DNA from: a virus
Virus record (IMG/VR): IMGVR_UViG_3300041964_000099
Span: 1-64,000 of that record
Direction: 5' to 3' (one strand)
DNA length: 64,000 bases
How positions within the stretch are numbered: position 1 is the first letter of the stretch; the number at the start of each line of letters is the position of its first letter. The position numbers and the translations under genes were made by a program. The notes beneath the pieces are model-generated. The model ran no database searches. It was not told where the DNA came from and saw only the letters and a list, made by a program, of their open reading frames with translations. This document shows, in pieces, positions 2,004 to 60,038 of this stretch.

Positions 2004-2305
2004 TTCGTGTCATTCCGTGTTATCAGCTCGTCAGTTTCTTGTCTTCCTCTATTGCACAACTGAATTGCGCCTTGGACTGCTGTGGCAGCAACTTGAATAA
2101 GTTCAAAAGGATCGGGGTCATTTTCTTTGACGCTATCCCAGAACTCGTCTAGTTCCTCTAGCAATACCGCATAAAGCTCATGTGAGCTATTGAATCTGCC
2201 ATGTTCAGCAGCAGCGGCAACCATTTCATCTTGAACCGCATCAAAGATGGTTGTTGATGTAATTTGCAATGCTTTGTTTGTATGTCGCTTCATTTTAGAT
2301 GCCAA
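2000..2305 (-). CDS. MazG-like nucleotide pyrophosphohydrolase, putative
   Basis: The 101-residue protein is predicted to be mostly helical. Its core, EELDEFWDSVK followed by ELIQVAATA, matches the E-x2-D style acidic helices of all-alpha NTP pyrophosphohydrolases (MazG/dUTPase-like) often seen in phages and plasmids. Those enzymes bind magnesium through such acidic helices and hydrolyse NTPs or dNTPs to the monophosphate. A second ATG at 2293 would avoid overlap with the recombinase stop at 2295 and is an equally good start. It sits between the recombinase and the HAD phosphatase on the same strand. Family assignment is by motif only. Confidence 0.6.
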   Translation of the reverse strand: MASKMKRHTNKALQITSTTIFDAVQDEMVAAAAEHGRFNSSHELYAVLLEELDEFWDSVKENDPDPFELIQVAATAVQGAIQLCNRGRQETDELITRNDTK

Positions 2306-3281
2306 GTTTCAAAGCCTGAACTGCCTCATGCTTCTTGTCTTCCTGCCGCTGGTCATACTTTGCCGTCGTTGCCGGATCGGAGTGCCCGACCAGGCGCTGC
2401 ACAAGAATGATATCGACCCCGGCCTTAAGTAAGTATGTGATAAAAGTTCGGCGAAAGTCATGCGGTGAACAGTCTGGAATGCCAGCTTGTTGCACCCGCT
2501 TTTTGAGCATCACAAGCACCGCTTGAGACTGAAGCGGATTAGGAGAATAGATTAAATTGTCTCCCCGGTTAATCGGGCAGAACAATGGCCCCGGTCTATC
2601 ACCCCGGCGATCGAGCCAGCGCTGTACAGGTGGGATAGCATAGGTCGGCAGGTAAGTAATGCGCGACTTGCGCCCTTTACCATTTAGCACTTTGACGCTG
2701 CCAGTGGTGAGATCAACTTCTTCGCGCATCAGATTCACGACTTCCGATCGCCGCAGGCCCGCGCACAAAATGCCGAGCATTCCAGCATCGCGATCGCCCG
2801 CTGCGGTGGCTTCAGCCTCGCAAACTGCAAACAATTTGCCCAGCTCCGCTTCAGTCAGGGCACGGCCAGACTGAAACTCTTCGGCTTTGATGTCAGCAAT
2901 GTTTGCCGCGCGATGGAAAGTTTCTGTCTCCATCTGCCCCAGCTCCCAGGCTGCACGCAGCGTCTTGCGCAACGCGCAGAGCATTCGATTTGCAGTCTTC
3001 GGAGCATAAAGCGTCATCAGCACCGATCGCAGCGCGACCGTGTGCTGATAGCGCAGTTGTGCCCAGTCGAAGGAGACTGCATCATGCTGCCCGCTCGTGA
3101 GTAGCCCTGCCATCTTATTGAGAGCGCCCAGCATGGTCGGGCGCGAAGATGCCCCTAACTGTGCCAAATAAAGCAGTGCAGGCCGCTCATCTGAAGGGCG
3201 CGGGGAGACCCAGCCCAGCTCGCCAGAGGGAGAGTGAACAAGGGTAGCTGGGATAGGTAGAGGAGCGACACGAGCAGTCAT
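2295..3281 (-). CDS. Tyrosine recombinase / phage-type integrase
   Basis: Numbered from the ATG at 3281 (328 residues), the C-terminal catalytic domain has the full active-site set. These are Arg in AGLRRSE (about 177), Lys in GKGRKSR (about 203-205), His-x-x-Arg in HDFRR (274-277), His in VGHSD (300) and the nucleophile Tyr309 in TAKYD. Residues 30-130 form the helical core-binding (SAM-like) domain. An upstream ATG at 3344 would add 21 residues and overlap the next gene. The enzyme would integrate, excise or resolve the element by site-specific strand exchange. It is of XerC/XerD size with no obvious arm-binding domain. No attachment site could be identified by eye. Confidence 0.93.
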   Translation of the reverse strand: MTARVAPLPIPATLVHSPSGELGWVSPRPSDERPALLYLAQLGASSRPTMLGALNKMAGLLTSGQHDAVSFDWAQLRYQHTVALRSVLMTLYAPKTANRMLCALRKTLRAAWELGQMETETFHRAANIADIKAEEFQSGRALTEAELGKLFAVCEAEATAAGDRDAGMLGILCAGLRRSEVVNLMREEVDLTTGSVKVLNGKGRKSRITYLPTYAIPPVQRWLDRRGDRPGPLFCPINRGDNLIYSPNPLQSQAVLVMLKKRVQQAGIPDCSPHDFRRTFITYLLKAGVDIILVQRLVGHSDPATTAKYDQRQEDKKHEAVQALKLGI

Positions 3282-3321
3282 GAGAAGTGAAAGTGAGAAG
3301 TTAAACCTAGTGTTCCCAGCG

Positions 3322-3669
3322 TCAGAGACTGCCCTGAACGACATGATCGCGCAGCTCTAAACCCAAGAAGCCGCGAGAAATGTAAGGGGTGTCTTTCCCA
3401 ACCAAAATTTTGAGTTTGAGATCGGGTCGGTTGAGTTTGGCGATCGCATCGTCTCGCCAGTTCTCCATCACTGAAACCATCTCCTCGCTGTGCATCACCA
3501 GCAGCACTGAGGAACCACGGCTCGCTGTTGCGATCGCATCCACGAGCATTGCAGTGGTGCGGCCTGAGCGCCGGGGATATTCAGGATTGACCCGTGCTTT
3601 CTCTTGAAAAAATTCGATCGGTTGCAGGCTGAGCTGCTTGAGAATTTCATCTTGGTTCAGGCTAGTCAT
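3322..3669 (-). CDS. Small P-loop-like protein of unknown function
   Basis: This 115-residue protein contains PRRSGRTTAML (about residues 32-42), which resembles a degenerate Walker A motif of the GRTT type. It is followed by a helix and a beta strand (SSVLLVMHS) as in P-loop folds. The Walker lysine is replaced (Arg in SGRTT), and no clear Walker B is seen in so short a protein. It may be a truncated or regulatory NTPase-like domain. It lies upstream of the recombinase on the same strand with a short overlap if the longer recombinase start is used. Confidence 0.6.
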   Translation of the reverse strand: MTSLNQDEILKQLSLQPIEFFQEKARVNPEYPRRSGRTTAMLVDAIATASRGSSVLLVMHSEEMVSVMENWRDDAIAKLNRPDLKLKILVGKDTPYISRGFLGLELRDHVVQGSL

Positions 3670-7304: not shown

Positions 7305-8810
7305 ATGAAAGGCTTAAGCGAATCCCCGATCGATCGTAAAAAATCTCTAGACTCTCGCATTGTTCGCGTTGTGCAAGTCATGCCAACCGAACCGATCGAG
7401 ATTGACTGGAATAGGGCAGGAATTCAAAAAACTGATGATTATGATTGCCGTGCGCAAAATTCCGCCAAAGTAGCAGAATCGGCAGAAGTGCGATCGCTAC
7501 CTCACCACACTACCGATCGGCAGATTAAGCATTATGGCCTAGATCGATCGCGTCAAAAATTGGTGAATGGTCGCATCATTCAGGATTCCAAGGTAGGTAC
7601 ATCTGCCGATCCTTTTACAGGTTGGCAAGCGCAAACCGTGCCTAGCTTTTTCGAGTTGATGTGCTGTCTTTCTCTTCAGGTATCCCACGAATCCCTAGCA
7701 CTGCTGGAAACACTAGGCTATGAGAAAACTTTTTTAGATACTCTCTCAATTGGTGATCTAGTCACAGCCAGAAAACTACTTAAAAAACATCCGTTTGCCT
7801 ATACCGAACGCGGATCGTTATGGGAACAATTGCCCACGTCGATCCGTATTACTCCCAAAATTTGCCTAACTACTGCGATCGTTTGTTCTATGCTTCTGCC
7901 CAAACAGGGCGATCCGCTAGTTTCTAAATTCTTGCGATCGCTCGTTTGGAACAAACAGCCATCAAACAAAGTACGGATCGAAGTTGATATTTATCACACT
8001 GAAACTAGCGCTAGGTTTGCGATCGGACGGGTTAAGCCAATCGCAAGAAATCGAGTAGTCGGGGAAGTCAAAAAAATTGCAGCATCGTCTAAAACTCGCT
8101 TCACTGAAGCAACAAACGAAACCGCCAAACAACTGAATGAGGCTAGGCTAAATTACGATACTCGCTACATTCACGGCACTATTGAGATCGTTTTGTCGCC
8201 ATCTAACAATCGAGGGAAGCATATTTGCGCGGTGACAGCGATCGATCTCAATAGCGGGCGCATTATCCCGCTAGGCACAATCCGCCACAAAGATGGCAAG
8301 CTGTTCTATGTGTTCAAAGATATTTTGGCTGGAGATGGCGATCGTCAAGCGCTAGAAGGCGCATTAAAAAAACGATCGATCGCGCCCGGTAAAATGGCCG
8401 CAGAAATTGCCGACACTAAAGCAAAAATTTCGGCTAAAAATAGAGAGATTGAGGAGATGAAAGGCAAGATCAAGACGGTTAGGGATCTAGCACTCACCAA
8501 GAAACTAGAAGCGCTACGGATTGAGTTAAAACAGCTACACGCGGATCTAGCTTCCCTCTCATCTCCCAATAATGCGGATCACATCCGCCAAAACTTGCAG
8601 AAGTTTGATCAATCGCTACTCTTTCCGATCGTGTCTGCCCTATCTTCTCTAGGCTTGCAGTTTAATCACTGGGTTCGCTGTATTCCCTCACAATCGCCCC
8701 TATCCTCTCCCCGATACTGGGCAGACAAATTTGGCGTACTGGTTTGCTATGACGATGATCAGATCAAGGCTAATAAACCGATCGAGTTCGTGAAAGACTT
8801 ACGCAAGTAA
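7305..8810 (+). CDS. Large hypothetical protein with coiled coil
   Basis: The 501-residue product has a polar N-terminus (about residues 1-95), a central alpha/beta part (EVDIYHTETSARFAIGRVK, IEIVLSP) and a coiled coil at about residues 360-420 rich in Lys and Glu. The C-terminal part ends near DKFGVLVCYDDDQIK. The sequence is unusually dense in GATC. There is no signal peptide and no catalytic motif that I can name. It follows the repeat-tailed gene and ends in a clear terminator, so the two may form one unit driven from 6223. Confidence 0.7.
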   Translation: MKGLSESPIDRKKSLDSRIVRVVQVMPTEPIEIDWNRAGIQKTDDYDCRAQNSAKVAESAEVRSLPHHTTDRQIKHYGLDRSRQKLVNGRIIQDSKVGTSADPFTGWQAQTVPSFFELMCCLSLQVSHESLALLETLGYEKTFLDTLSIGDLVTARKLLKKHPFAYTERGSLWEQLPTSIRITPKICLTTAIVCSMLLPKQGDPLVSKFLRSLVWNKQPSNKVRIEVDIYHTETSARFAIGRVKPIARNRVVGEVKKIAASSKTRFTEATNETAKQLNEARLNYDTRYIHGTIEIVLSPSNNRGKHICAVTAIDLNSGRIIPLGTIRHKDGKLFYVFKDILAGDGDRQALEGALKKRSIAPGKMAAEIADTKAKISAKNREIEEMKGKIKTVRDLALTKKLEALRIELKQLHADLASLSSPNNADHIRQNLQKFDQSLLFPIVSALSSLGLQFNHWVRCIPSQSPLSSPRYWADKFGVLVCYDDDQIKANKPIEFVKDLRK

Positions 8811-8827
8811 ATTTTCACTAGAAACCA

Positions 8828-8870
8828 ATCAACCCCGCTTCGGCTACCAGGTCGAAGCGGGGTTGATTTT
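8828..8870 (+). terminator. Intrinsic terminator
   Basis: The arms at 8828-8842 and 8853-8867 pair perfectly over 15 bp with a 10-base loop, ending in TTTT. It lies directly after the stop of the gene at 7305. Confidence 0.8.
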
Positions 8871-8934
8871 CGTTCTGAGGATAAATCCGTTGACGCCGAT
8901 AAACTCTCTGCTGGCAGGTCATTTTGGGTCGGGA

Positions 8935-9273
8935 TCATCGGGATCGGCATCTAGCAGCATAGTAGCCCTGCCAATAGGCATCGCTGCGATCGCAGTCAGG
9001 CTTGGCAGCTCGCTGGGTCAAATCCTCATGTTTGGGTGTTGTTTTGCGGCCACGCTTGCGCTTGCCATCAGTCAAGCGCTCAAGGTTGTCTGGGTCGTTC
9101 TCATTGCGATCGCCGCTGATGTGATGAACAACGCTTCCATCATTCGGCTCTGCGCCAGCAATGCGGCGATAGGATCGCCGACCATCCTTGTAGGCTGGGT
9201 TGTTCTCGCCTTCAAGAGCTTTGGATCGCTTGCGCTTATGTTCTGCTGATTGGGTGTATCCGGGTTTAGGCAT
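8935..9273 (-). CDS. HNH-type endonuclease, NUMOD-like N-terminus
   Basis: Counted from the ATG at 9273 (112 residues), the N-terminal SAEHKRKRSKALEGENNPAY resembles the NUMOD3-type DNA-binding motif of phage homing-type nucleases. VVHHISGDRNENDPDNLERL gives the His-His-Asn core of an HNH site (His50, His51, Asn58/Asn63). Such proteins nick or cleave DNA using one metal ion. An upstream in-frame ATG at 9351 would run through the iteron array and is unlikely. It is encoded opposite its neighbours and abuts the decayed replication-gene copy, as expected for a mobile nuclease gene. Confidence 0.75.
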   Translation of the reverse strand: MPKPGYTQSAEHKRKRSKALEGENNPAYKDGRRSYRRIAGAEPNDGSVVHHISGDRNENDPDNLERLTDGKRKRGRKTTPKHEDLTQRAAKPDCDRSDAYWQGYYAARCRSR

Positions 9274-9285
9274 GGGATTAGTGTG

Positions 9286-9600
9286 CCCGACTGGAGCGCG
9301 GTTGATCAAACGATCAGCTCTGATGATCAAACGATCAGTGTCATTGATCAAACGATCATTGGTGCTGATCGTTTGATCAATGAGGCATACCTCAAACCCT
9401 TGCCAGAAGGCAGTTTGGGCGTTTCCCCCAATTATTTATCAATTATCTATCAATTTCTTTTCAAATAGAGAGAGAGAAAGGGCAGCCGACTTGCTTAAAA
9501 AACAGCTTCAACCCGCTTCGTTGCCAGAACTGACAGGTTTAATTACGGCAGTGAGAGACACGGGTAAGGATCGCTTTTCCGCCGCGCAAATTTTGTGTAA
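9286..9600 (+). pseudogene. Decayed copy of the iteron-bearing replication-like gene
   Basis: This stretch aligns with about 59196-59510 of the replication-like gene at 58887. It shares the same four 21-bp repeats, a CCCCCAATT-rich AT segment, a run of GAGAGAGA encoding RERE, GCTTCGTTGCC and TTCCGCCGCGC. The frame is broken: the first part reads in one frame to a stop at 9468 and the second part in another. The N-terminal HTH-coding part is absent. It is a fragment left by duplication or recombination. Its iterons and AT-rich stretch could still act in cis. Confidence 0.75.
9301..9384. repeat. Four 21-bp iteron-like repeats, the last inverted in core
   Basis: Units begin at 9301, 9322, 9343 and 9364. 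The first three carry GATCAAACGATCA and the fourth carries the reverse form GATCGTTTGATCA in the same 21-bp register. The array matches the one at 59211-59294. Confidence 0.85.
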
Positions 9601-9602
9601 AA

Positions 9603-9638
9603 CCAGCCTTCGATCACTTTCGAGTCTACGAAGGCTGG
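9603..9638 (+). terminator. Hairpin before the diguanylate cyclase gene
   Basis: CCAGCCTTCG (9603-9612) pairs with CGAAGGCTGG (9629-9638) over a 16-base loop. No T-tract follows, so termination is uncertain. Confidence 0.35.
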
Positions 9639-9661
9639 ATGCCCATTAAGTCAAAACAAGC

Positions 9662-10216
9662 ATGAACAATATACACGAGACGATCGCCACACTGCGGGCT
9701 GAAATCACGGCACTACGCAGAGAAAATGCACTACTCAAAGACATGGCGCTTCGTGATGCGCTGACCGGAATCTACAACCGTCGCATGTTTGACGTGCGGC
9801 TGGAAGCAGAATGGTCGCGAGCGCAGCGCCAAGCTACACAGATATCGATCTTGATGATCGATATCGATCACTTCAAGCGCTTTAACGATCAGCACGGGCA
9901 TGTTGCGGGCGATCGACTGCTGCATCAACTGGCAGCCGCGTGGAGCTGCATCAAAATGCGCGGGAATGATCTGCTGACTCGCTACGGCGGAGAAGAATTT
10001 GCAGTGATTTTGCCTGATACGACTCTTGTAGGAGCGACAAAGCTGGCCGATCGCCTGCGAATGGTGGCTGAGGCGCAAGGAATAACAGTATCCATTGGGA
10101 TCGCAGCGATCAAGCCGACCGTGAACAATGACCCGCGAATTTTGCTGGCACAAGCTGACCAAGCGCTGTACACGGCAAAGCAGTCTGGGCGCAATCGAGC
10201 CGTCTGCTACAGTTGA
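9662..10216 (+). CDS. Diguanylate cyclase (GGDEF domain only)
   Basis: The 184-residue protein is a short helical N-terminus (possible coiled coil, residues 1-27) joined to a complete GGDEF domain. The signature is GGEEF at 109-113, with the metal-binding Asp in MIDIDHFKRFND (65-76). An RxxD inhibitory site, RGND at 100-103, stands five residues before the signature as in product-inhibited enzymes. It should make cyclic di-GMP from two GTP in the cytoplasm. There is no sensor domain or membrane segment, so any input must come through the N-terminal helix or a partner. It is unusual on an accessory element and could alter host motility or biofilm behaviour. Confidence 0.93.
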   Translation: MNNIHETIATLRAEITALRRENALLKDMALRDALTGIYNRRMFDVRLEAEWSRAQRQATQISILMIDIDHFKRFNDQHGHVAGDRLLHQLAAAWSCIKMRGNDLLTRYGGEEFAVILPDTTLVGATKLADRLRMVAEAQGITVSIGIAAIKPTVNNDPRILLAQADQALYTAKQSGRNRAVCYS

Positions 10217-43127: not shown

Positions 43128-43859
43128 ATGTGTTTGCAATCTGATCAACTGAAAAGCCCATTACTCGCCATCAGCTACAGCAAGCCGGAAACGCACCACG
43201 GCTACACTTCCGCAAAAATGTCGGCCTGTCCTGCATGGCGAGACGAGAGCAACGATATTCGCTGCTTCAGCAAATACCGACAATACCCCGATCGTTTCTA
43301 TCAGTCTCTGCGGCTGCAAACCTATGTGTCAGCGGACTCAAAGAGACAGTATGCCGATTCTAAAATCGCATACTTCGATCCCTACTCAGTCAATGCCGAG
43401 GAAGCGGAAATGATGCACAAAACATTGCAGCGGATTCGGCGGCAAATGTCGAAGTTCAATGACAAATTTGCCTACCCCGAAACCTTTGGAGGCGAAATAA
43501 ACCGACTTGCTTGGATAGTTGGGGCAAAAGAAATTTGGATTTGGCGAACAGAAAAAACGGGCGTATCACTGAAGCCAGCCGACGCGATCGAGGTCATAGA
43601 CCAGGACTGGATGCACCTTCAGACTGAATGCCAAATCAAGGCCGGAACCTATGACGGCGTAGTGAAATGCTTCACAACGGCCCCAGTTGAATACGACGGG
43701 TTTGGCACAGTAGCGCCGGAGACCCGCGAGATCAAAGGGCAGACCGTCCGGCTAGTTGAGATTGAAGGCCGCTACTATCGCTGGCAAGTCGATCGCTATC
43801 GCAGCGGACTGTACCTCACGACTCGCACCGAAGCAGAGATGACGCGCTATCTCAAGTAG
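43128..43859 (+). CDS. Hypothetical protein, tandem paralogue A1
   Basis: From the ATG at 43128 with TTGGAGG upstream the product has 243 residues. It closely matches the gene at 43998: the same YRQYPDR-type block, RRIRRQMSK helix, EIWIWRTEKTG and CQIKAGTYDGVVKC followed by TTAP, then VRLVEIEGRYYRWQVDRYRS near the end. The conserved Trp, Arg and Cys positions suggest a specific fold, unnamed. It is part of a tandem duplication. Confidence 0.75.
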   Translation: MCLQSDQLKSPLLAISYSKPETHHGYTSAKMSACPAWRDESNDIRCFSKYRQYPDRFYQSLRLQTYVSADSKRQYADSKIAYFDPYSVNAEEAEMMHKTLQRIRRQMSKFNDKFAYPETFGGEINRLAWIVGAKEIWIWRTEKTGVSLKPADAIEVIDQDWMHLQTECQIKAGTYDGVVKCFTTAPVEYDGFGTVAPETREIKGQTVRLVEIEGRYYRWQVDRYRSGLYLTTRTEAEMTRYLK

Positions 43860-43871
43860 TGCTGGAAGCCG

Positions 43872-43997
43872 ATGGCGATCGGCTTCCAGCACAAGGCACA
43901 CCCCTACCGGCTGGAGCTGCATCAGTTTCACTTCCGCAGCGCATTCGATCGCAACCGTGGCCCCAAGTTTTTCATTCAATCAACTAGGAGATTAACT
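43872..43997 (+). pseudogene. Truncated 5' fragment of a gene like that at 44720
   Basis: The frame from 43872 reads MAIGFQHKAHPYRLELHQFH, matching the start of the gene at 44720 (IEFQYEGHPYRLDLHQYHYH). It then runs into the boundary repeat at 43939. It is the remains of the first copy of gene B in the duplicated A-B module and is unlikely to be functional. Confidence 0.7.
43939..43966 (+). repeat. Boundary repeat of a tandem duplication, copy 2
   Basis: It matches 43003-43030 with one change and is the junction where the truncated copy of gene B meets the duplicated leader. A 13-base part (AACTGTGGCCCCA) also occurs once more near 42708. Confidence 0.85.
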
Positions 43998-44723
43998 ATG
44001 TCAGACGACAAAAAGCATCTAAAACCAATAATCGCTATTTCCAAAGGCCAGCCAGAATCGCATTACGGTTCAGTCCATGCAAAGATTGTGGCCTATCCTG
44101 CTTGCCAAGAAGAAGATGGAGTTGTTTATGGCTTGGGCAATAATTATCGATACCCTGATCGAGCTTATCAATCATTGGGAATGCACACATGGGTGTTTTC
44201 AGATACAAAGTCCTGTGGAGAATGCAAAATTGCTTATCGCGATGTCTATGAAATAGATTTTGACGACATGGAACGAATGAGCAAGACGATGCGCCGCATT
44301 CGCCGCCGTATTACTCAATATGTCGATAAAAACGGCTATGTTGAGACTTTTGGGCATCGTGTAGCGCGATTTGCTTGGGTTTTGAATGCCACACAAGTTT
44401 GGATTTGGCAGACAGAAAAAACCGGCATTTTGCTCAAGGTCGATGATGCGATCGATATCCTTAACCAAACTTGGGAGAATTTGCATATCGACTGCCAAAT
44501 CAAAGCTGGAACCTATGACGGCGTAGTGAAATGCTACACAACTGCGCCTGCGGACTATGACGCCTTTGAAAGCAAAACGATCGAACATTACAAAATTAAA
44601 GACAAGACAGTTCGCGTCGTTGAGATTGAAGGTCGGCATTACAATTGGCACGTCAGCCGCTATCAAAGCGGAATGCACATCACGACGCGCACTAAAGAGG
44701 AAATGGCTCTCTGTGTTGGATGA
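43998..44723 (+). CDS. Hypothetical protein, tandem paralogue A2
   Basis: From the ATG at 43998 with AGGAG upstream the product has 241 residues. It is paralogous along its length to the gene at 43128, including YRYPDRAYQSLGM, MRRIRRRITQ, VWIWQTEKTG and KAGTYDGVVKCYTTAP. It has an extra CGEC motif in the first half. It overlaps the next gene by four bases. Function unknown. Retention of both copies suggests that dosage or divergence matters. Confidence 0.75.
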   Translation: MSDDKKHLKPIIAISKGQPESHYGSVHAKIVAYPACQEEDGVVYGLGNNYRYPDRAYQSLGMHTWVFSDTKSCGECKIAYRDVYEIDFDDMERMSKTMRRIRRRITQYVDKNGYVETFGHRVARFAWVLNATQVWIWQTEKTGILLKVDDAIDILNQTWENLHIDCQIKAGTYDGVVKCYTTAPADYDAFESKTIEHYKIKDKTVRVVEIEGRHYNWHVSRYQSGMHITTRTKEEMALCVG

Positions 44724-45043
44724 AAACTATCACTATCGAATTCCAGTACGAGGGCCACCCCTATCGCCTGGATCTGCATCAGTATCATTATCACTTCTAC
44801 GAAAAGCGAGCGCTCACCGTCTGGGAGGGCGCTTTATTTTTGGCAGCCGTTACAGACCCGACCACGTTTGAGCGCATCAACCCCAGCCGCGAGCTGGCCG
44901 TTGCTGCGCTGCAAGCCATCAAAGTGTTGCCCGCTGCTCAGCGGCGCAGGATTGCACGACGGGCGATCGATCGCGTCGTTGCTCTCCTCACTGAGGACTA
45001 TGTGAAAAATCTGCAAATCTGCCAATCGATCGGCGTACTTTGA
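44720..45043 (+). CDS. Hypothetical protein, partner B of paralogue A2
   Basis: The 107-residue product is coupled to A2 by an ATGA overlap. It starts with a strand-rich part (ITIEFQYEGHPYRLDLHQYH) and ends in a basic helical part (LPAAQRRRIARRAIDRVVAL). A truncated duplicate lies at 43872. It precedes the DGQHR/DndB-like gene by 28 bases. Family unknown. Confidence 0.7.
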   Translation: MKTITIEFQYEGHPYRLDLHQYHYHFYEKRALTVWEGALFLAAVTDPTTFERINPSRELAVAALQAIKVLPAAQRRRIARRAIDRVVALLTEDYVKNLQICQSIGVL

Positions 45044-53686: not shown

Positions 53687-55240
53687 ATGCTGGCCCGATC
53701 GCTAAATGCAAGTGAGCAAAGATGGCTGTATGAAGCTGTTCAATATGCTTTGGCAACAAAGCAGACGCCAAAAAACTTTGAAGCGCTGTTAGTTGACAGC
53801 TTTCCAGAAGAGTTGCTGCCACAAGCCAAAGCGCTTTCAGTTCAGCATTATCAACACATTGTTAGCACTCAGCCGCAGTTAGTTGCTAATCCAGAGACTC
53901 CATATGAACCCCCCCTAGAAAATCAGCCGCCTGCACATAGCGCTTCTGATTCTGAACCTGTTTATGAACCAGTCTATGAGCCGCAGACTGAAGAAAGTTA
54001 TCAGCAGTACACCACAACTACAACGACAGCGCCCGCAGATGCAGCAGAACCCGATCCGCGTCCCTACTCAGAACCATTCCCGTTAGACCGCAATCCGACG
54101 CGAGAGGAACTTGAGGCAAAGGGGCAAGAACTGCTGTGGATTTGTCGCCGCCGTCGCGCTTCTTGTCTGCCGGTGAACCTTCTCAACAGCGCTCGGTTCT
54201 ATGAATTTCAGATTGTGCCAGACATAGAACAAAACGTTGCCGTTGACGCAGTTATGAAGCTGCAACAAGATTTTATTGTTCATGCTGGCCTTCCCCAATC
54301 GACCTTGCTAGAGCGGCAGTCTGGCTCAATCGGGATTCAAGTGCCAAAAGTGGAATGGGAGCCGCTGCGCTTCCTCAATCACTTTACGCCCAAAGTTATG
54401 CCGCCACAGCCAGAGCTGCCCCTCACGGCCTACATTGGCTTGGATAAAAGGCTGGAATGGATTAAGCAAAGAATTTTAGGAGTGGCGCTAGGTGGTGCGT
54501 TTGAAAGCGGCAAAAGCTGCTGGATCAAGCAAGTTGTTTTGTCGCTGATGGCAAGTCGCAACCCCAATGATTTCAAGGTCATCTTCGTTGATGTCAAGCC
54601 TGAAGGCTATGACATCTTCGATCGATCGCCCTGGTCGCTGGGATGCGACGATTTCTTGTCAACTGAGAGCAACAAATTAGATTGCTTGAGAGCAAAATGC
54701 TCAATTAAAGACCCAGGAGATTTTTACACTTTTCTGCAACTGGCCCTAATAGAAGGGGCTGAACGACAAACGTTGTTTCGCGCACACGGAACAAACAACC
54801 TCTTGGATTTCAACCAGGTGCAGCCGAACATGGCGCTGCCACAGATCCTCGTGATTGTTGATGAAACAGGAATGACGCTCGGCTCACCTGGCAGTAGTTG
54901 GCGCAAAAAAATTGGCCCGCTCTCGATCCAAGCTGTCAAAGCGCTGCGATCGTCAGGGTTCTGCTGGGTTTTTGGTGATCAGCGTCCGGCCAATCGGGTC
55001 ATCCCCGAAGACGTTGACACCAACCTGACGCTGCGAATTGGTTTTCAGGTTGGGGATAAAAATGACAGCGAAATTGTTTTAGGCCGGGGCTACCCCCAAG
55101 CCATGTATTTGCGAGGGCATGGTGATGGCTTTTGTCGCAGTGGCGGGGAATTGCAGCGCTTTCAATCTGCGCTAGTCAAGGACTCTGACATCCTCTCATT
55201 CCTGAGATGGAGCACTCAAAAATATCGAAATTTAGGCTAA
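53687..55240 (+). CDS. FtsK/SpoIIIE-like DNA translocase ATPase
   Basis: The 517-residue product has a helical N-terminal domain (1-65), a disordered Pro/Thr/Glu-rich linker (66-135) and a C-terminal motor domain. Walker A is GAFESGKS at 270-277 and Walker B is ILVIVDE at 387-393. The late TLRIGFQVGDKNDSEIVLG matches the FtsK block (RIxFxVxxxxDSxxxL) with the sensor/arginine-finger region. It has no membrane helices of its own, unlike FtsK, and lacks a recognisable gamma domain. The membrane proteins just upstream may anchor it. The family pumps double-stranded DNA. A role in transfer or segregation of this element is inferred from context. Confidence 0.85.
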   Translation: MLARSLNASEQRWLYEAVQYALATKQTPKNFEALLVDSFPEELLPQAKALSVQHYQHIVSTQPQLVANPETPYEPPLENQPPAHSASDSEPVYEPVYEPQTEESYQQYTTTTTTAPADAAEPDPRPYSEPFPLDRNPTREELEAKGQELLWICRRRRASCLPVNLLNSARFYEFQIVPDIEQNVAVDAVMKLQQDFIVHAGLPQSTLLERQSGSIGIQVPKVEWEPLRFLNHFTPKVMPPQPELPLTAYIGLDKRLEWIKQRILGVALGGAFESGKSCWIKQVVLSLMASRNPNDFKVIFVDVKPEGYDIFDRSPWSLGCDDFLSTESNKLDCLRAKCSIKDPGDFYTFLQLALIEGAERQTLFRAHGTNNLLDFNQVQPNMALPQILVIVDETGMTLGSPGSSWRKKIGPLSIQAVKALRSSGFCWVFGDQRPANRVIPEDVDTNLTLRIGFQVGDKNDSEIVLGRGYPQAMYLRGHGDGFCRSGGELQRFQSALVKDSDILSFLRWSTQKYRNLG

Positions 55241-56181
55241 TGAACAAAGTATCGCGACGAAGATTTCTGCGTATTGGTGGCGCTTCAGTAATCGGGCTAA
55301 CAGCCTTCACTGAAGCTGAAACTTTGCAGCCGCAGGAAGAATCAATCAGCAGTTCTGTGCCGCTCGACGCGCACGAGCAATCGCTATTAGTCCCTCTAAA
55401 TCAACCTGTTGCTTCGCCTGCTGCGGCCAGGTCGCCCGCTGCCCCTGCGCCTGCGCCGCGATCGCCCACGACGCCACCCCCACCCCCACCAGGCAGTGAA
55501 TTTCGGCGACAAGGGAGGCGCGTTGTGCCTGTGGTCGATAACGATCGACCACAGGCGCGATCCTATACTCCGGCCAAAGGCATGACGCCAGAGATTGAAA
55601 GTCGGGTTTGGGCCGCCTTCCAGCGGGTAATTATGTTCGCCGAAGGAACCTGGTATCGGGGCAGCCCGCATAACGGTTACTTAATCATGTACACAGGCAA
55701 AAATATCAGAGATATCCTGCCGAACTTTCAATATGAAAAGCATCCCTATTTCCTAGTGCCAGCAAATCGCCGCAGCTCTGTAATACCCTGTGGCCTGATT
55801 AAAGGCAGGCGTGTGTGTAGCTGGGCCAGCGGTATTGGGCAGTTTATGCCCGATACGTGGACGGAGTTTTGGCACAAATATCCCAAAGTTTGGTTTCAGT
55901 CGATTCCAGAATTTGGAGCGCAAAATCAAGACCGCATGATCCAAATCCTCGCCGGAGAGTGCGGCGCGTATTGGGCGCTGATGCGCGGCGTGGCGATCGC
56001 TGCTGGCAAAGCAGAGGTGAACCGCGATAATTTGCGCACAGCCATTGTCAAGGCCAGTCCAACTTGGGCTGGTTTGCCAAATTGGTTAGACGAAAGTGCC
56101 CTTGATCAGAATGCTAAGCCGATGGCGGAGCTGGAGAGACTGTTTTATCGTGAACTCAATGATTTACAGCGAGCAGTTTGA
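55240..56181 (+). CDS. Tat-exported lysozyme or transglycosylase-like protein
   Basis: From the ATG at 55240, which overlaps the stop of the ATPase gene, the product has 313 residues. It starts with a twin-arginine signal (VSRRRFLRIGGASVIGLTAF). A Pro/Ala-rich periplasmic linker (about 45-85) follows. The C-terminal domain resembles lambda-type endolysins: FAEGTWYRG with a likely catalytic Glu, CGLIKGRRVCSWASG with a Cys pair, then GQFMPDTW and NQDRMIQIL. It should cleave peptidoglycan in the periplasm. Such enzymes open the wall for conjugation machines. Coupling to the ATPase gene supports a shared complex. Confidence 0.8.
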   Translation: MNKVSRRRFLRIGGASVIGLTAFTEAETLQPQEESISSSVPLDAHEQSLLVPLNQPVASPAAARSPAAPAPAPRSPTTPPPPPPGSEFRRQGRRVVPVVDNDRPQARSYTPAKGMTPEIESRVWAAFQRVIMFAEGTWYRGSPHNGYLIMYTGKNIRDILPNFQYEKHPYFLVPANRRSSVIPCGLIKGRRVCSWASGIGQFMPDTWTEFWHKYPKVWFQSIPEFGAQNQDRMIQILAGECGAYWALMRGVAIAAGKAEVNRDNLRTAIVKASPTWAGLPNWLDESALDQNAKPMAELERLFYRELNDLQRAV

Positions 56182-58830: not shown

Positions 58831-58890
58831 ATGACACAAACCAGCTTGAAACTGCTTCCGCACAGCCTGACGGCGAGGAGCAGGAAATGA
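58831..58890 (+). CDS. Leader peptide coupled to the replication-like gene
   Basis: A 19-codon reading frame (MTQTSLKLLPHSLTARSRK) ends in an ATGA that supplies the start of the next gene, whose ribosome site GAGGAGCAGG lies inside it. Short coupled leaders are common before plasmid replication-initiator genes. Its start MTQTS echoes the MTQTT of the initiator-like gene, so it may derive from a duplication. Confidence 0.5.
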   Translation: MTQTSLKLLPHSLTARSRK

Positions 58891-60038
58891 CACAAACCAC
58901 ACCTCAACCCAAAGACAAACCGCACTATCGGTTTTACCTTGAACAGATAAAAGAAGACTACGAACAAGGCAATTTAACCGCGAAAGGAGCGCTACTCATG
59001 GCTCTGCGGATCATGCGGAGACCGGGGCATCAGCTCAGAATCACGAACATGGATGACTTTGCCAAGATCATTGGCTGCAATGCCCGCACCTGCTACAGCT
59101 CAATTAACAGGCTGAAAGAAGAGAAGCTAATTGAGTGGAAAGATGTCGCGGGCATTGATATCTGGATTCCCGTCAGGAAAGAATCAGCCGTTGCTAAACG
59201 CAAAATTGGCATTGATCAAACGATCAGTGGCACTGATCAAACGATCAATCCTACTGATCAAACGATCAGTGGCACTGATCAAACGATCAATGACACCCCC
59301 TTAGAATCCTTGTCAGAGGCCGATTCTAGCGATCCCCCCAATTCTTTCTCAGATAATTCTTCAATTTTTTCTCAAAGAGAGAGAGAAAGCGCGGAAGATT
59401 TTGAAAAATTAGAACAGCCGTCTGCTTCGTTGCCGGAACAAAACGAACCCCCCACAATCCCAGACAACACGGGTGGAGACCAAAGTTCCGCCGCGCCTGC
59501 TGCGGCCCCGTTCGACTGGAAAACTTATCACTGGGCTGGATACGAAAAGGCTGGAGATGGTGGCAGCGATCCTAAGTTTTGGGATTGGGCCAGAGACTTT
59601 GTTGTTGGACTGGCTGAAAAACGCGCAAATTCAGATAGCCCGATCGGTGAAATTGATGCCTATACCCGCAAGTGCATCCAGACCCGTGCAGCAGCAGGGT
59701 ATGAAAAATATCTGATTTCGATCGGGGTTTTAGCACCTCCTCAAGCCCCACCCCAAGCTGCAAGTCAAACTGAATCGGTGAGAGGTCGCGGCATTCATTG
59801 GTCTGAATCAGGCAGTTGGGAAAATCCTCCCAGTGATTTGAGCGAGGAATTTGCCCTCTTTAAGATTCATTGGTCGCGTTTAGAGCTGGGCTGGAAGAAT
59901 CCGGCCTTCCTGGAATGGATTGAAAAAGCTCAGGCCCTGCAAGCTTTCCGTTGGGATAACTACAGCAGTCTGCACACCTTGCCGGACTGGGCTGTAGCGA
60001 AGCTAGCTCACGATCTTTCAAACACAAAATTCCTATGA
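58887..60038 (+). CDS. Replication-initiator-like protein (lambda O-style) with iterons inside the gene
   Basis: The 383-residue product begins with a helical wing/HTH domain (about residues 10-95: AKIIGCNARTCYSSINRLKE then KLIEWKDV), as in winged-helix initiators and DnaD/lambda O-type proteins. Codons 109-136 fall in four 21-bp repeats that encode (I/T)DQTI(S/N)xx. An AT-rich and GAGAGA-rich stretch follows (about 59340-59420). The C-terminal half (from FDWKTYHW) has a helical domain. N-terminal DNA-binding domain, iterons and AT-rich segment inside the reading frame is the organisation of lambda O/ori. It overlaps the next gene by four bases. Confidence 0.75.
   Translation: MTQTTPQPKDKPHYRFYLEQIKEDYEQGNLTAKGALLMALRIMRRPGHQLRITNMDDFAKIIGCNARTCYSSINRLKEEKLIEWKDVAGIDIWIPVRKESAVAKRKIGIDQTISGTDQTINPTDQTISGTDQTINDTPLESLSEADSSDPPNSFSDNSSIFSQRERESAEDFEKLEQPSASLPEQNEPPTIPDNTGGDQSSAAPAAAPFDWKTYHWAGYEKAGDGGSDPKFWDWARDFVVGLAEKRANSDSPIGEIDAYTRKCIQTRAAAGYEKYLISIGVLAPPQAPPQAASQTESVRGRGIHWSESGSWENPPSDLSEEFALFKIHWSRLELGWKNPAFLEWIEKAQALQAFRWDNYSSLHTLPDWAVAKLAHDLSNTKFL
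59211..59294 (+). repeat. Four 21-bp iterons inside the replication-like gene
   Basis: Units start at 59211, 59232, 59253 and 59274, each with GATCAAACGATCA. They alternate between two forms (…CAGTGGC and …CAATCCT/CAATGAC). The 21-bp period equals two helical turns, as in classical iteron arrays. The same array, in part inverted, occurs at 9301-9384. Confidence 0.9.

What the first reader, a model, noticed from the sequence alone, without database searches (positions are those of the whole stretch)
9286..9600. Broken second copy of the iteron-bearing gene 50 kb away
Seen directly: 9286-9600 aligns with about 59196-59510 (four 21-bp repeats in the same register, AT-rich segment, GAGAGAGA, GCTTCGTTGCC, TTCCGCCGCGC), but the reading frame is broken and the N-terminal HTH part is missing. 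One repeat is inverted in its core. Inference: a duplicated origin region whose cis sequence (iterons plus AT-rich DNA) survived while the protein decayed. It could be a second origin or an incompatibility/handcuffing site controlling copy number.
Basis: partly seen in the sequence, partly recalled or inferred. Interest (0 to 1): 0.7.

Follow-up and report, generated by a model that had tools for sequence, protein, structure and literature searches.

The report
Orphan second copy of replication origin
A virus of cyanobacteria carries, 50,000 bases from its replication-starter gene, a truncated second copy of that gene in which the protein is broken but every DNA signal of a replication origin is intact, so it may be a spare origin or a sponge for the starter protein, though an inert leftover is not excluded.

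Summary
Four 14-bp dyads, TGATC-AAAC-GATCA, sit at 9303-9379 on an exact 21-bp pitch; the fourth is the exact reverse complement. They match the array inside the HTH gene at 58887-60038. Homology runs 9302-9530 (71% identity), at protein level to 9586, far above shuffles; the HTH part and C-terminus are absent and one net frameshift breaks the rest. Cores are identical (0/42 mismatches, 0/14 for the flipped one), while spacers differ at 14/21. The AT-rich stretch 51 bp past the last core is the least stable 50 bp of the 121-kb record.

The HTH gene belongs to an apparently unnamed family on cyanobacterial plasmids, most with their own in-gene 18-21-bp arrays; on one plasmid dnaB follows. A genuine Phage_rep_O gene elsewhere carries the same grammar. 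This is lambda-O-like origin architecture, although P0001 itself fails the Phage_rep_O model.

So 9302-9586 is the origin core of a second, truncated initiator gene, probably still bindable by P0001. Whether it fires, titrates the initiator or is a young inert relic is undecided; I lean to a functional cis element (0.47). None of 11 relatives searched (3 in part) has a second array.

The parts
9303..9379 (.). Array 2: four 14-bp dyads TGATC-AAAC-GATCA at 21-bp pitch (9303, 9324, 9345 on +; 9366 on -)
   Evidence: Exact matches, none elsewhere in 121 kb except array 1; 0/42 core mismatches for the three direct copies, 0/14 for the fourth as reverse complement, against 14/21 in the spacers
9430..9479 (.). 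AT-rich stretch (candidate unwinding element) of array 2; starts 51 bp past the last core
   Evidence: Least stable 40- and 50-bp window in the whole 121,302-bp record; the matching stretch of array 1 starts at the same distance (distance line)
9301..9586 (+). Truncated, frameshifted remnant of an initiator gene like P0001 (residues about 109-203); HTH domain and C-terminus absent
   Evidence: tblastn of P0001: 9301-9486 E 4e-7, 9425-9586 E 1e-4 in a second frame; no similarity left of the array or right of 9600
8935..9274 (-). HNH/NUMOD3 homing-endonuclease-like gene; its likely ATG lies about 27 bp from array 2
   Evidence: Pfam HNH_3 E 2e-6 and NUMOD3 E 8e-6; start read from the sequence, the longer TTG start at 9351 would run into the array
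9662..10216 (+). Single-domain GGDEF (diguanylate cyclase) gene downstream of array 2
   Evidence: Pfam GGDEF E 6e-45
58887..60038 (+). P0001, candidate replication initiator (winged HTH + in-gene origin + C-terminal part)
   Evidence: Model of residues 1-98: H-H-b-H-H-b-b winged helix, mean pLDDT 81; weak hits to phage DnaD-like and O-like initiators; relatives on cyanobacterial plasmids
59213..59289 (+). Array 1: four 14-bp dyads at 21-bp pitch inside P0001
59340..59389 (.). AT-rich stretch of array 1
   Evidence: Ranks 9th among separate least-stable 50-bp sites in 121 kb

Best explanation
9302-9586 is the origin core of a second lambda-O-type initiator gene that has lost its HTH end and its C-terminal end and has a frameshift, but keeps four perfect initiator-binding dyads and the adjoining AT-rich unwinding stretch. 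P0001, made 50 kb away, binds it in trans, probably one dimer per dyad on one face of the helix (21 bp is two turns). It thereby acts as a retained cis element of the same replicon: an accessory origin and/or a site that titrates or couples initiator and so limits firing at the in-gene origin. Shown: sequence, homology, core conservation, AT-rich stretch, truncation. Inferred: that P0001 is an initiator, that it binds both arrays, that array 2 is in use. Of the two uses I put titration and accessory origin about equal.
For: Exact cores and pitch in both arrays; cores 0/42 vs spacers 14/21 (Fisher p 3e-9) and vs flank 71/206 (p 2.5e-7); no third-codon-position excess of mismatches across 9301-9440 (15, 14, 11), so conservation there is at DNA level. 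AT-rich stretch at the same 51-bp offset, and the least stable site of the record. Homology starts at the first core, so what survives is close to the cis-acting origin core. Relatives on plasmids carry their own in-gene dyad arrays on 18-21-bp pitch, followed on T. variabilis plasmid B by dnaB. A Phage_rep_O protein on another viral contig has TGATCAGTCGATCA at 21-bp pitch in the same gene position. Precedents: lambda ori lies inside O, four dyad iterons plus 40 bp AT-rich, bound by dimers (PMC5043065); ectopic lambda ori copies lower available O and stop replication (PMC4488673); in V. cholerae chromosome 2 an iteron cluster 40 kb from ori2 titrates RctB (PMC6090056).
Against: No relative tested has a second array, so it is not a family feature. 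Only one frameshift and no further stop in the two overlapping frames, so the relic may be too young to show selection. No close relative of this virus was found in which to see whether array 2 persists. Initiator role of P0001 rests on architecture, neighbours of relatives and weak profile hits. GC skew gave no clear support for either site.
Confidence: 0.47

Rival explanations
1. Inert young relic: recombination with a related element (or an HNH-endonuclease-associated insertion) left a piece of that element's initiator gene; the cores match because both elements shared one initiator specificity, and too little time has passed for decay.
For: Both gene ends missing, one frameshift, otherwise open frames; mild third-position excess of mismatches in 9425-9586 (20, 24, 31 of 54 each), as for sequence that once was coding; HNH/NUMOD3 gene starts about 27 bp away; no second array in relatives.
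Against: The retained piece coincides with the origin core; the AT-rich stretch is more meltable than that of the working gene.
Confidence: 0.36
2. Decoy against related elements: in the lysogen the array soaks up the initiator of an incoming relative with the same specificity, blocking its replication.
For: Ectopic lambda ori copies on a multicopy plasmid arrest lambda replication (PMC4488673).
Against: That effect used 20-40 plasmid copies; one extra array beside the existing one adds little; it would also tax the virus's own replication.
Confidence: 0.07
3. Operator: P0001 bound at array 2, in the divergent intergenic region, controls the HNH gene and the GGDEF gene.
For: Array 2 lies between divergent genes.
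Against: No sigma-70-like promoter found in 8700-9800 (a crude test); homology and AT-rich stretch point to origin ancestry.
Confidence: 0.07

Closest known systems
Phage lambda O gene with ori-lambda (Phage_rep_O, PF04492)
   Same: Origin inside the initiator gene: four dyad iterons followed by about 40-50 bp AT-rich DNA; N-terminal DNA-binding domain of winged-HTH type in P0001, as inferred for O
   Different: P0001 does not match PF04492; iterons are 14-bp dyads at 21-bp pitch; a second, gene-less array exists 50 kb away
V. cholerae chromosome 2 distal RctB-binding cluster (datA-like)
   Same: Initiator-binding repeats tens of kb from the origin on the same replicon
   Different: There the sites are scattered over 74 kb and titration is reported; here one compact array with an AT-rich stretch, derived from an initiator gene, untested
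Iteron-plasmid incompatibility arrays (P1 incA type)
   Same: Extra array of the initiator's iterons away from the core origin
   Different: incA-type arrays lie near rep and have measured copy-number effects (own knowledge); here 50 kb away and inside a rep-gene remnant
In-gene-array HTH proteins of cyanobacterial plasmids (pNLP3, pAQ5, T. variabilis plasmid B and others)
   Same: N-terminal HTH, in-gene tandem array at 18-21-bp pitch, a SLSEGERE-like stretch behind it
   Different: Core sequences differ; none has a second array in the sequence examined

Membership tests
Phage_rep_O (lambda O) initiators | Match to PF04492 | tested here: not met
   P0001 and its N-terminal 98 residues give no PF04492 hit up to E 10, while the L017 protein does (34.3 bits, cut-off 28.7) in the same run
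Phage_rep_O (lambda O) initiators | Iteron array plus AT-rich stretch inside the initiator gene | tested here: met
   59213-59289 and 59340-59389 inside 58887-60038
Phage_rep_O (lambda O) initiators | Protein binds the iterons and opens the AT-rich stretch | not testable with these tools
   Needs purified protein
In-gene-array HTH proteins of cyanobacterial plasmids | Homologous N-terminal domain | tested here: met
   tblastn E 2e-9 to 6e-6 to three Nostocales plasmids
In-gene-array HTH proteins of cyanobacterial plasmids | In-gene tandem array at 18-21-bp pitch behind the HTH | tested here: met
   Period 21 found in P0001; 18-21 or 42 in the plasmid relatives; strong in most, weaker in pAQ5 and Fischerella
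DnaD-like helicase loaders (phrog_186) | Significant full-domain match | tested here: inconclusive
   E 4e-4, 21 bits, residues 34-154 of P0001; HTH part alone E 0.0018
Copy-control (incompatibility/titration) iteron locus, for array 2 | Same iterons as the origin, outside the core origin | tested here: met
Copy-control (incompatibility/titration) iteron locus, for array 2 | Changes copy number or exerts incompatibility | not testable with these tools
   Needs genetics

The most novel reading that the evidence does not exclude
A temperate cyanophage replicates from two lambda-type origins served by one initiator: the usual in-gene origin and an orphan origin made by stripping a second initiator gene down to its cis core, so that origin number or initiator titration is tuned by a fossil gene.
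Probability: 0.2. Interest if true: 0.75.

Novelty: new variant of a known kind. Interest (0 to 1): 0.46.

Why it matters
Origins that lie inside initiator genes tie cis and trans evolution together. A locus where the protein has broken while the cis part stays intact is a natural separation of the two, and would show how an orphan origin or an initiator sponge arises. It also draws attention to a family of candidate initiators on cyanobacterial plasmids, pAQ5 of the laboratory strain PCC 7002 included, whose in-gene origins could be tested directly.

Tried and rejected
Searches for close relatives of the virus or of either array: P0001 and the dyad pattern in viral contigs and cyanobacterial genomes, portal, orphan protein P0006, remnant ORF, and DNA of 9250-9660 in phages and plasmids: nothing close. 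The portal has only distant relatives in cyanobacterial genomes. L015 and L016 from the pattern scan: two cores each, L016 inside an unrelated lysozyme-like gene, not pursued. GC skew as origin marker: minimum at 108 kb, maximum at 38 kb, uninformative. DnaA boxes: one near array 2 among 8 in the record, not telling. Promoter scan: none. Fold search: only generic winged-helix matches, none at E<=0.001 in PDB and one unnamed protein in the viral library, so no functional assignment. The window part used a wrong sequence through a name clash and was redone; only the plasmid lines and the distance line are used. The GATC content of the cores (8 per array, the two densest clusters of the record) suggested methylation control, but the plasmid relatives' cores lack GATC, so it is left as an idea.

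Full report
What the window is. It is the first 64 kb of a 121,302-bp virus record classed as linear, possibly a fragment. HIP1 (GCGATCGC) occurs 120 times against 1.9 expected, spread along the record, which points to a cyanobacterial host. An integrase lies at 2295-3344, a portal near 110 kb, so a temperate virus is likely; the exact borders were not found, and I cannot fully exclude that the leftmost few kb are host DNA.

The observation. Array 2 (9303-9379) and array 1 (59213-59289) each hold four exact TGATCAAACGATCA dyads on a 21-bp pitch, array 2 with the fourth one flipped. Homology extends from 9302 to about 9530 at 71% and weakly on to about 9600. It is not only the repeats: the part outside them scores 77 against a shuffle maximum of 33. 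Left of the array there is no similarity (428 of 500 shuffles do as well) and none right of 9600.

What it derives from. tblastn of P0001 reads through 9301-9486 in one frame and 9425-9586 in another. So the segment descends from a gene like P0001 (residues about 109-203), with the HTH end and the C-terminal end missing and one net frameshift in the AT-rich stretch.

What P0001 is. The N-terminal 98 residues fold in the model as a winged helix (mean pLDDT 81). Profiles give weak hits to phage DnaD-like and O-like initiators; Phage_rep_O is not matched. Homologues occur on plasmids of Nostoc, Anabaena and Sphaerospermopsis, and one of these (P0002) leads to 17 plasmid records in ten genera. I examined ten such plasmid genes plus three others: tandem arrays of 18-21-bp pitch lie behind the HTH, clear in most and weaker in pAQ5 and Fischerella, with different core sequences. 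pNLP3 has TCCGCAAACGCGGA, pANA01 TCCCACACACGGGA, both with dyad symmetry like TGATCAAACGATCA. On T. variabilis plasmid B the gene is followed directly by dnaB, and in one cyanobacterial genome a dnaB-like frame lies downstream (L021, read by eye). A viral contig (L017) holds a true Phage_rep_O gene with TGATCAGTCGATCA three times at 21-bp pitch in the same position and a very AT-rich stretch behind. Lambda's origin lies inside O with four dyad iterons and 40 bp of AT-rich DNA (PMC5043065). By anatomy, P0001 works like lambda O; by profile it is not shown to be a member.

Is the cis part kept? Cores show 0/42 mismatches (plus 0/14 for the flipped one) where spacers show 14/21 and flank 71/206 (p 3e-9 and 2.5e-7). 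In the array the mismatches show no third-position excess, so the constraint is on DNA. The AT-rich stretch starts 51 bp past the last core in both copies, and that of array 2 is the least stable 40- or 50-bp window of the whole record, array 1's ranking 12th and 9th (distance line, 90). These facts show shared initiator specificity. They do not prove present use, because the same pattern could have been laid down while the segment was still part of a working gene in this or a related element; one frameshift and two truncations are all the decay seen.

Is a second array normal? No. Records or stretches searched with a single array: pNLP3, pANA01, S. kisseleviana plasmid 1, pAQ5, T. variabilis plasmid B, Scytonema plasmid 4, most of Dolichospermum pUHCC0315b, 50 of 70 kb of N. 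commune pANSO36C, half of Fischerella plasmid 3, the genome holding L022, and the L017 record.

Mechanism. I favour a retained cis element: P0001 binds array 2 in trans and either starts replication there or is held there. Extra origin copies are reported to reduce available lambda O and stop lambda replication (PMC4488673), and iterons 40 kb from ori2 titrate RctB on V. cholerae chromosome 2 (PMC6090056), so distance is no obstacle. The chief rival is an inert young relic, possibly connected with the HNH/NUMOD3 gene that starts about 27 bp away. The sequence alone does not decide between them.

Literature. I found no paper on the in-gene arrays of these plasmid proteins in the searches made, which cover only open-licence papers; novelty of the family is therefore tentative.

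Noticed in passing
L012, L013, L014, L033-L038 (plasmid records): HTH genes on cyanobacterial plasmids (pAQ5, T. variabilis plasmid B, pNLP3 and others) share an in-gene tandem array and look like an unnamed family of replication initiators with the origin inside the gene.
   Followed up: partly
L013:5995-7499 and L014:6010-7508: Two adjacent HTH genes: the first shares the HTH but has a different, nuclease-like-looking tail and no array; the second bears the array.
   Followed up: no
window 59213-59289 and 9303-9379: The two arrays are the densest GATC clusters of the record (8 GATC per 80 bp); GATC is methylated by DmtA in most cyanobacteria (PMC4390886), so hemimethylation could affect initiator binding.
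   Followed up: partly
window 7305-8810: 501-residue protein P0006 upstream of array 2 without any relative found in Pfam, PHROGs, plasmids, viral contigs or 386 cyanobacterial genomes.
   Followed up: partly
window 9662-10216: Stand-alone GGDEF domain gene in a virus record.
   Followed up: no
window 53687-56181: FtsK/SpoIIIE-like gene followed by an endolysin-like gene within the non-structural half.
   Followed up: no
window 43503-43930 and 44367-44787: Tandem 68%-identical duplication of about 430 bp.
   Followed up: no
L011:6492-8579: Portal protein fused to an inorganic-pyrophosphatase-like (InPase) domain.
   Followed up: no
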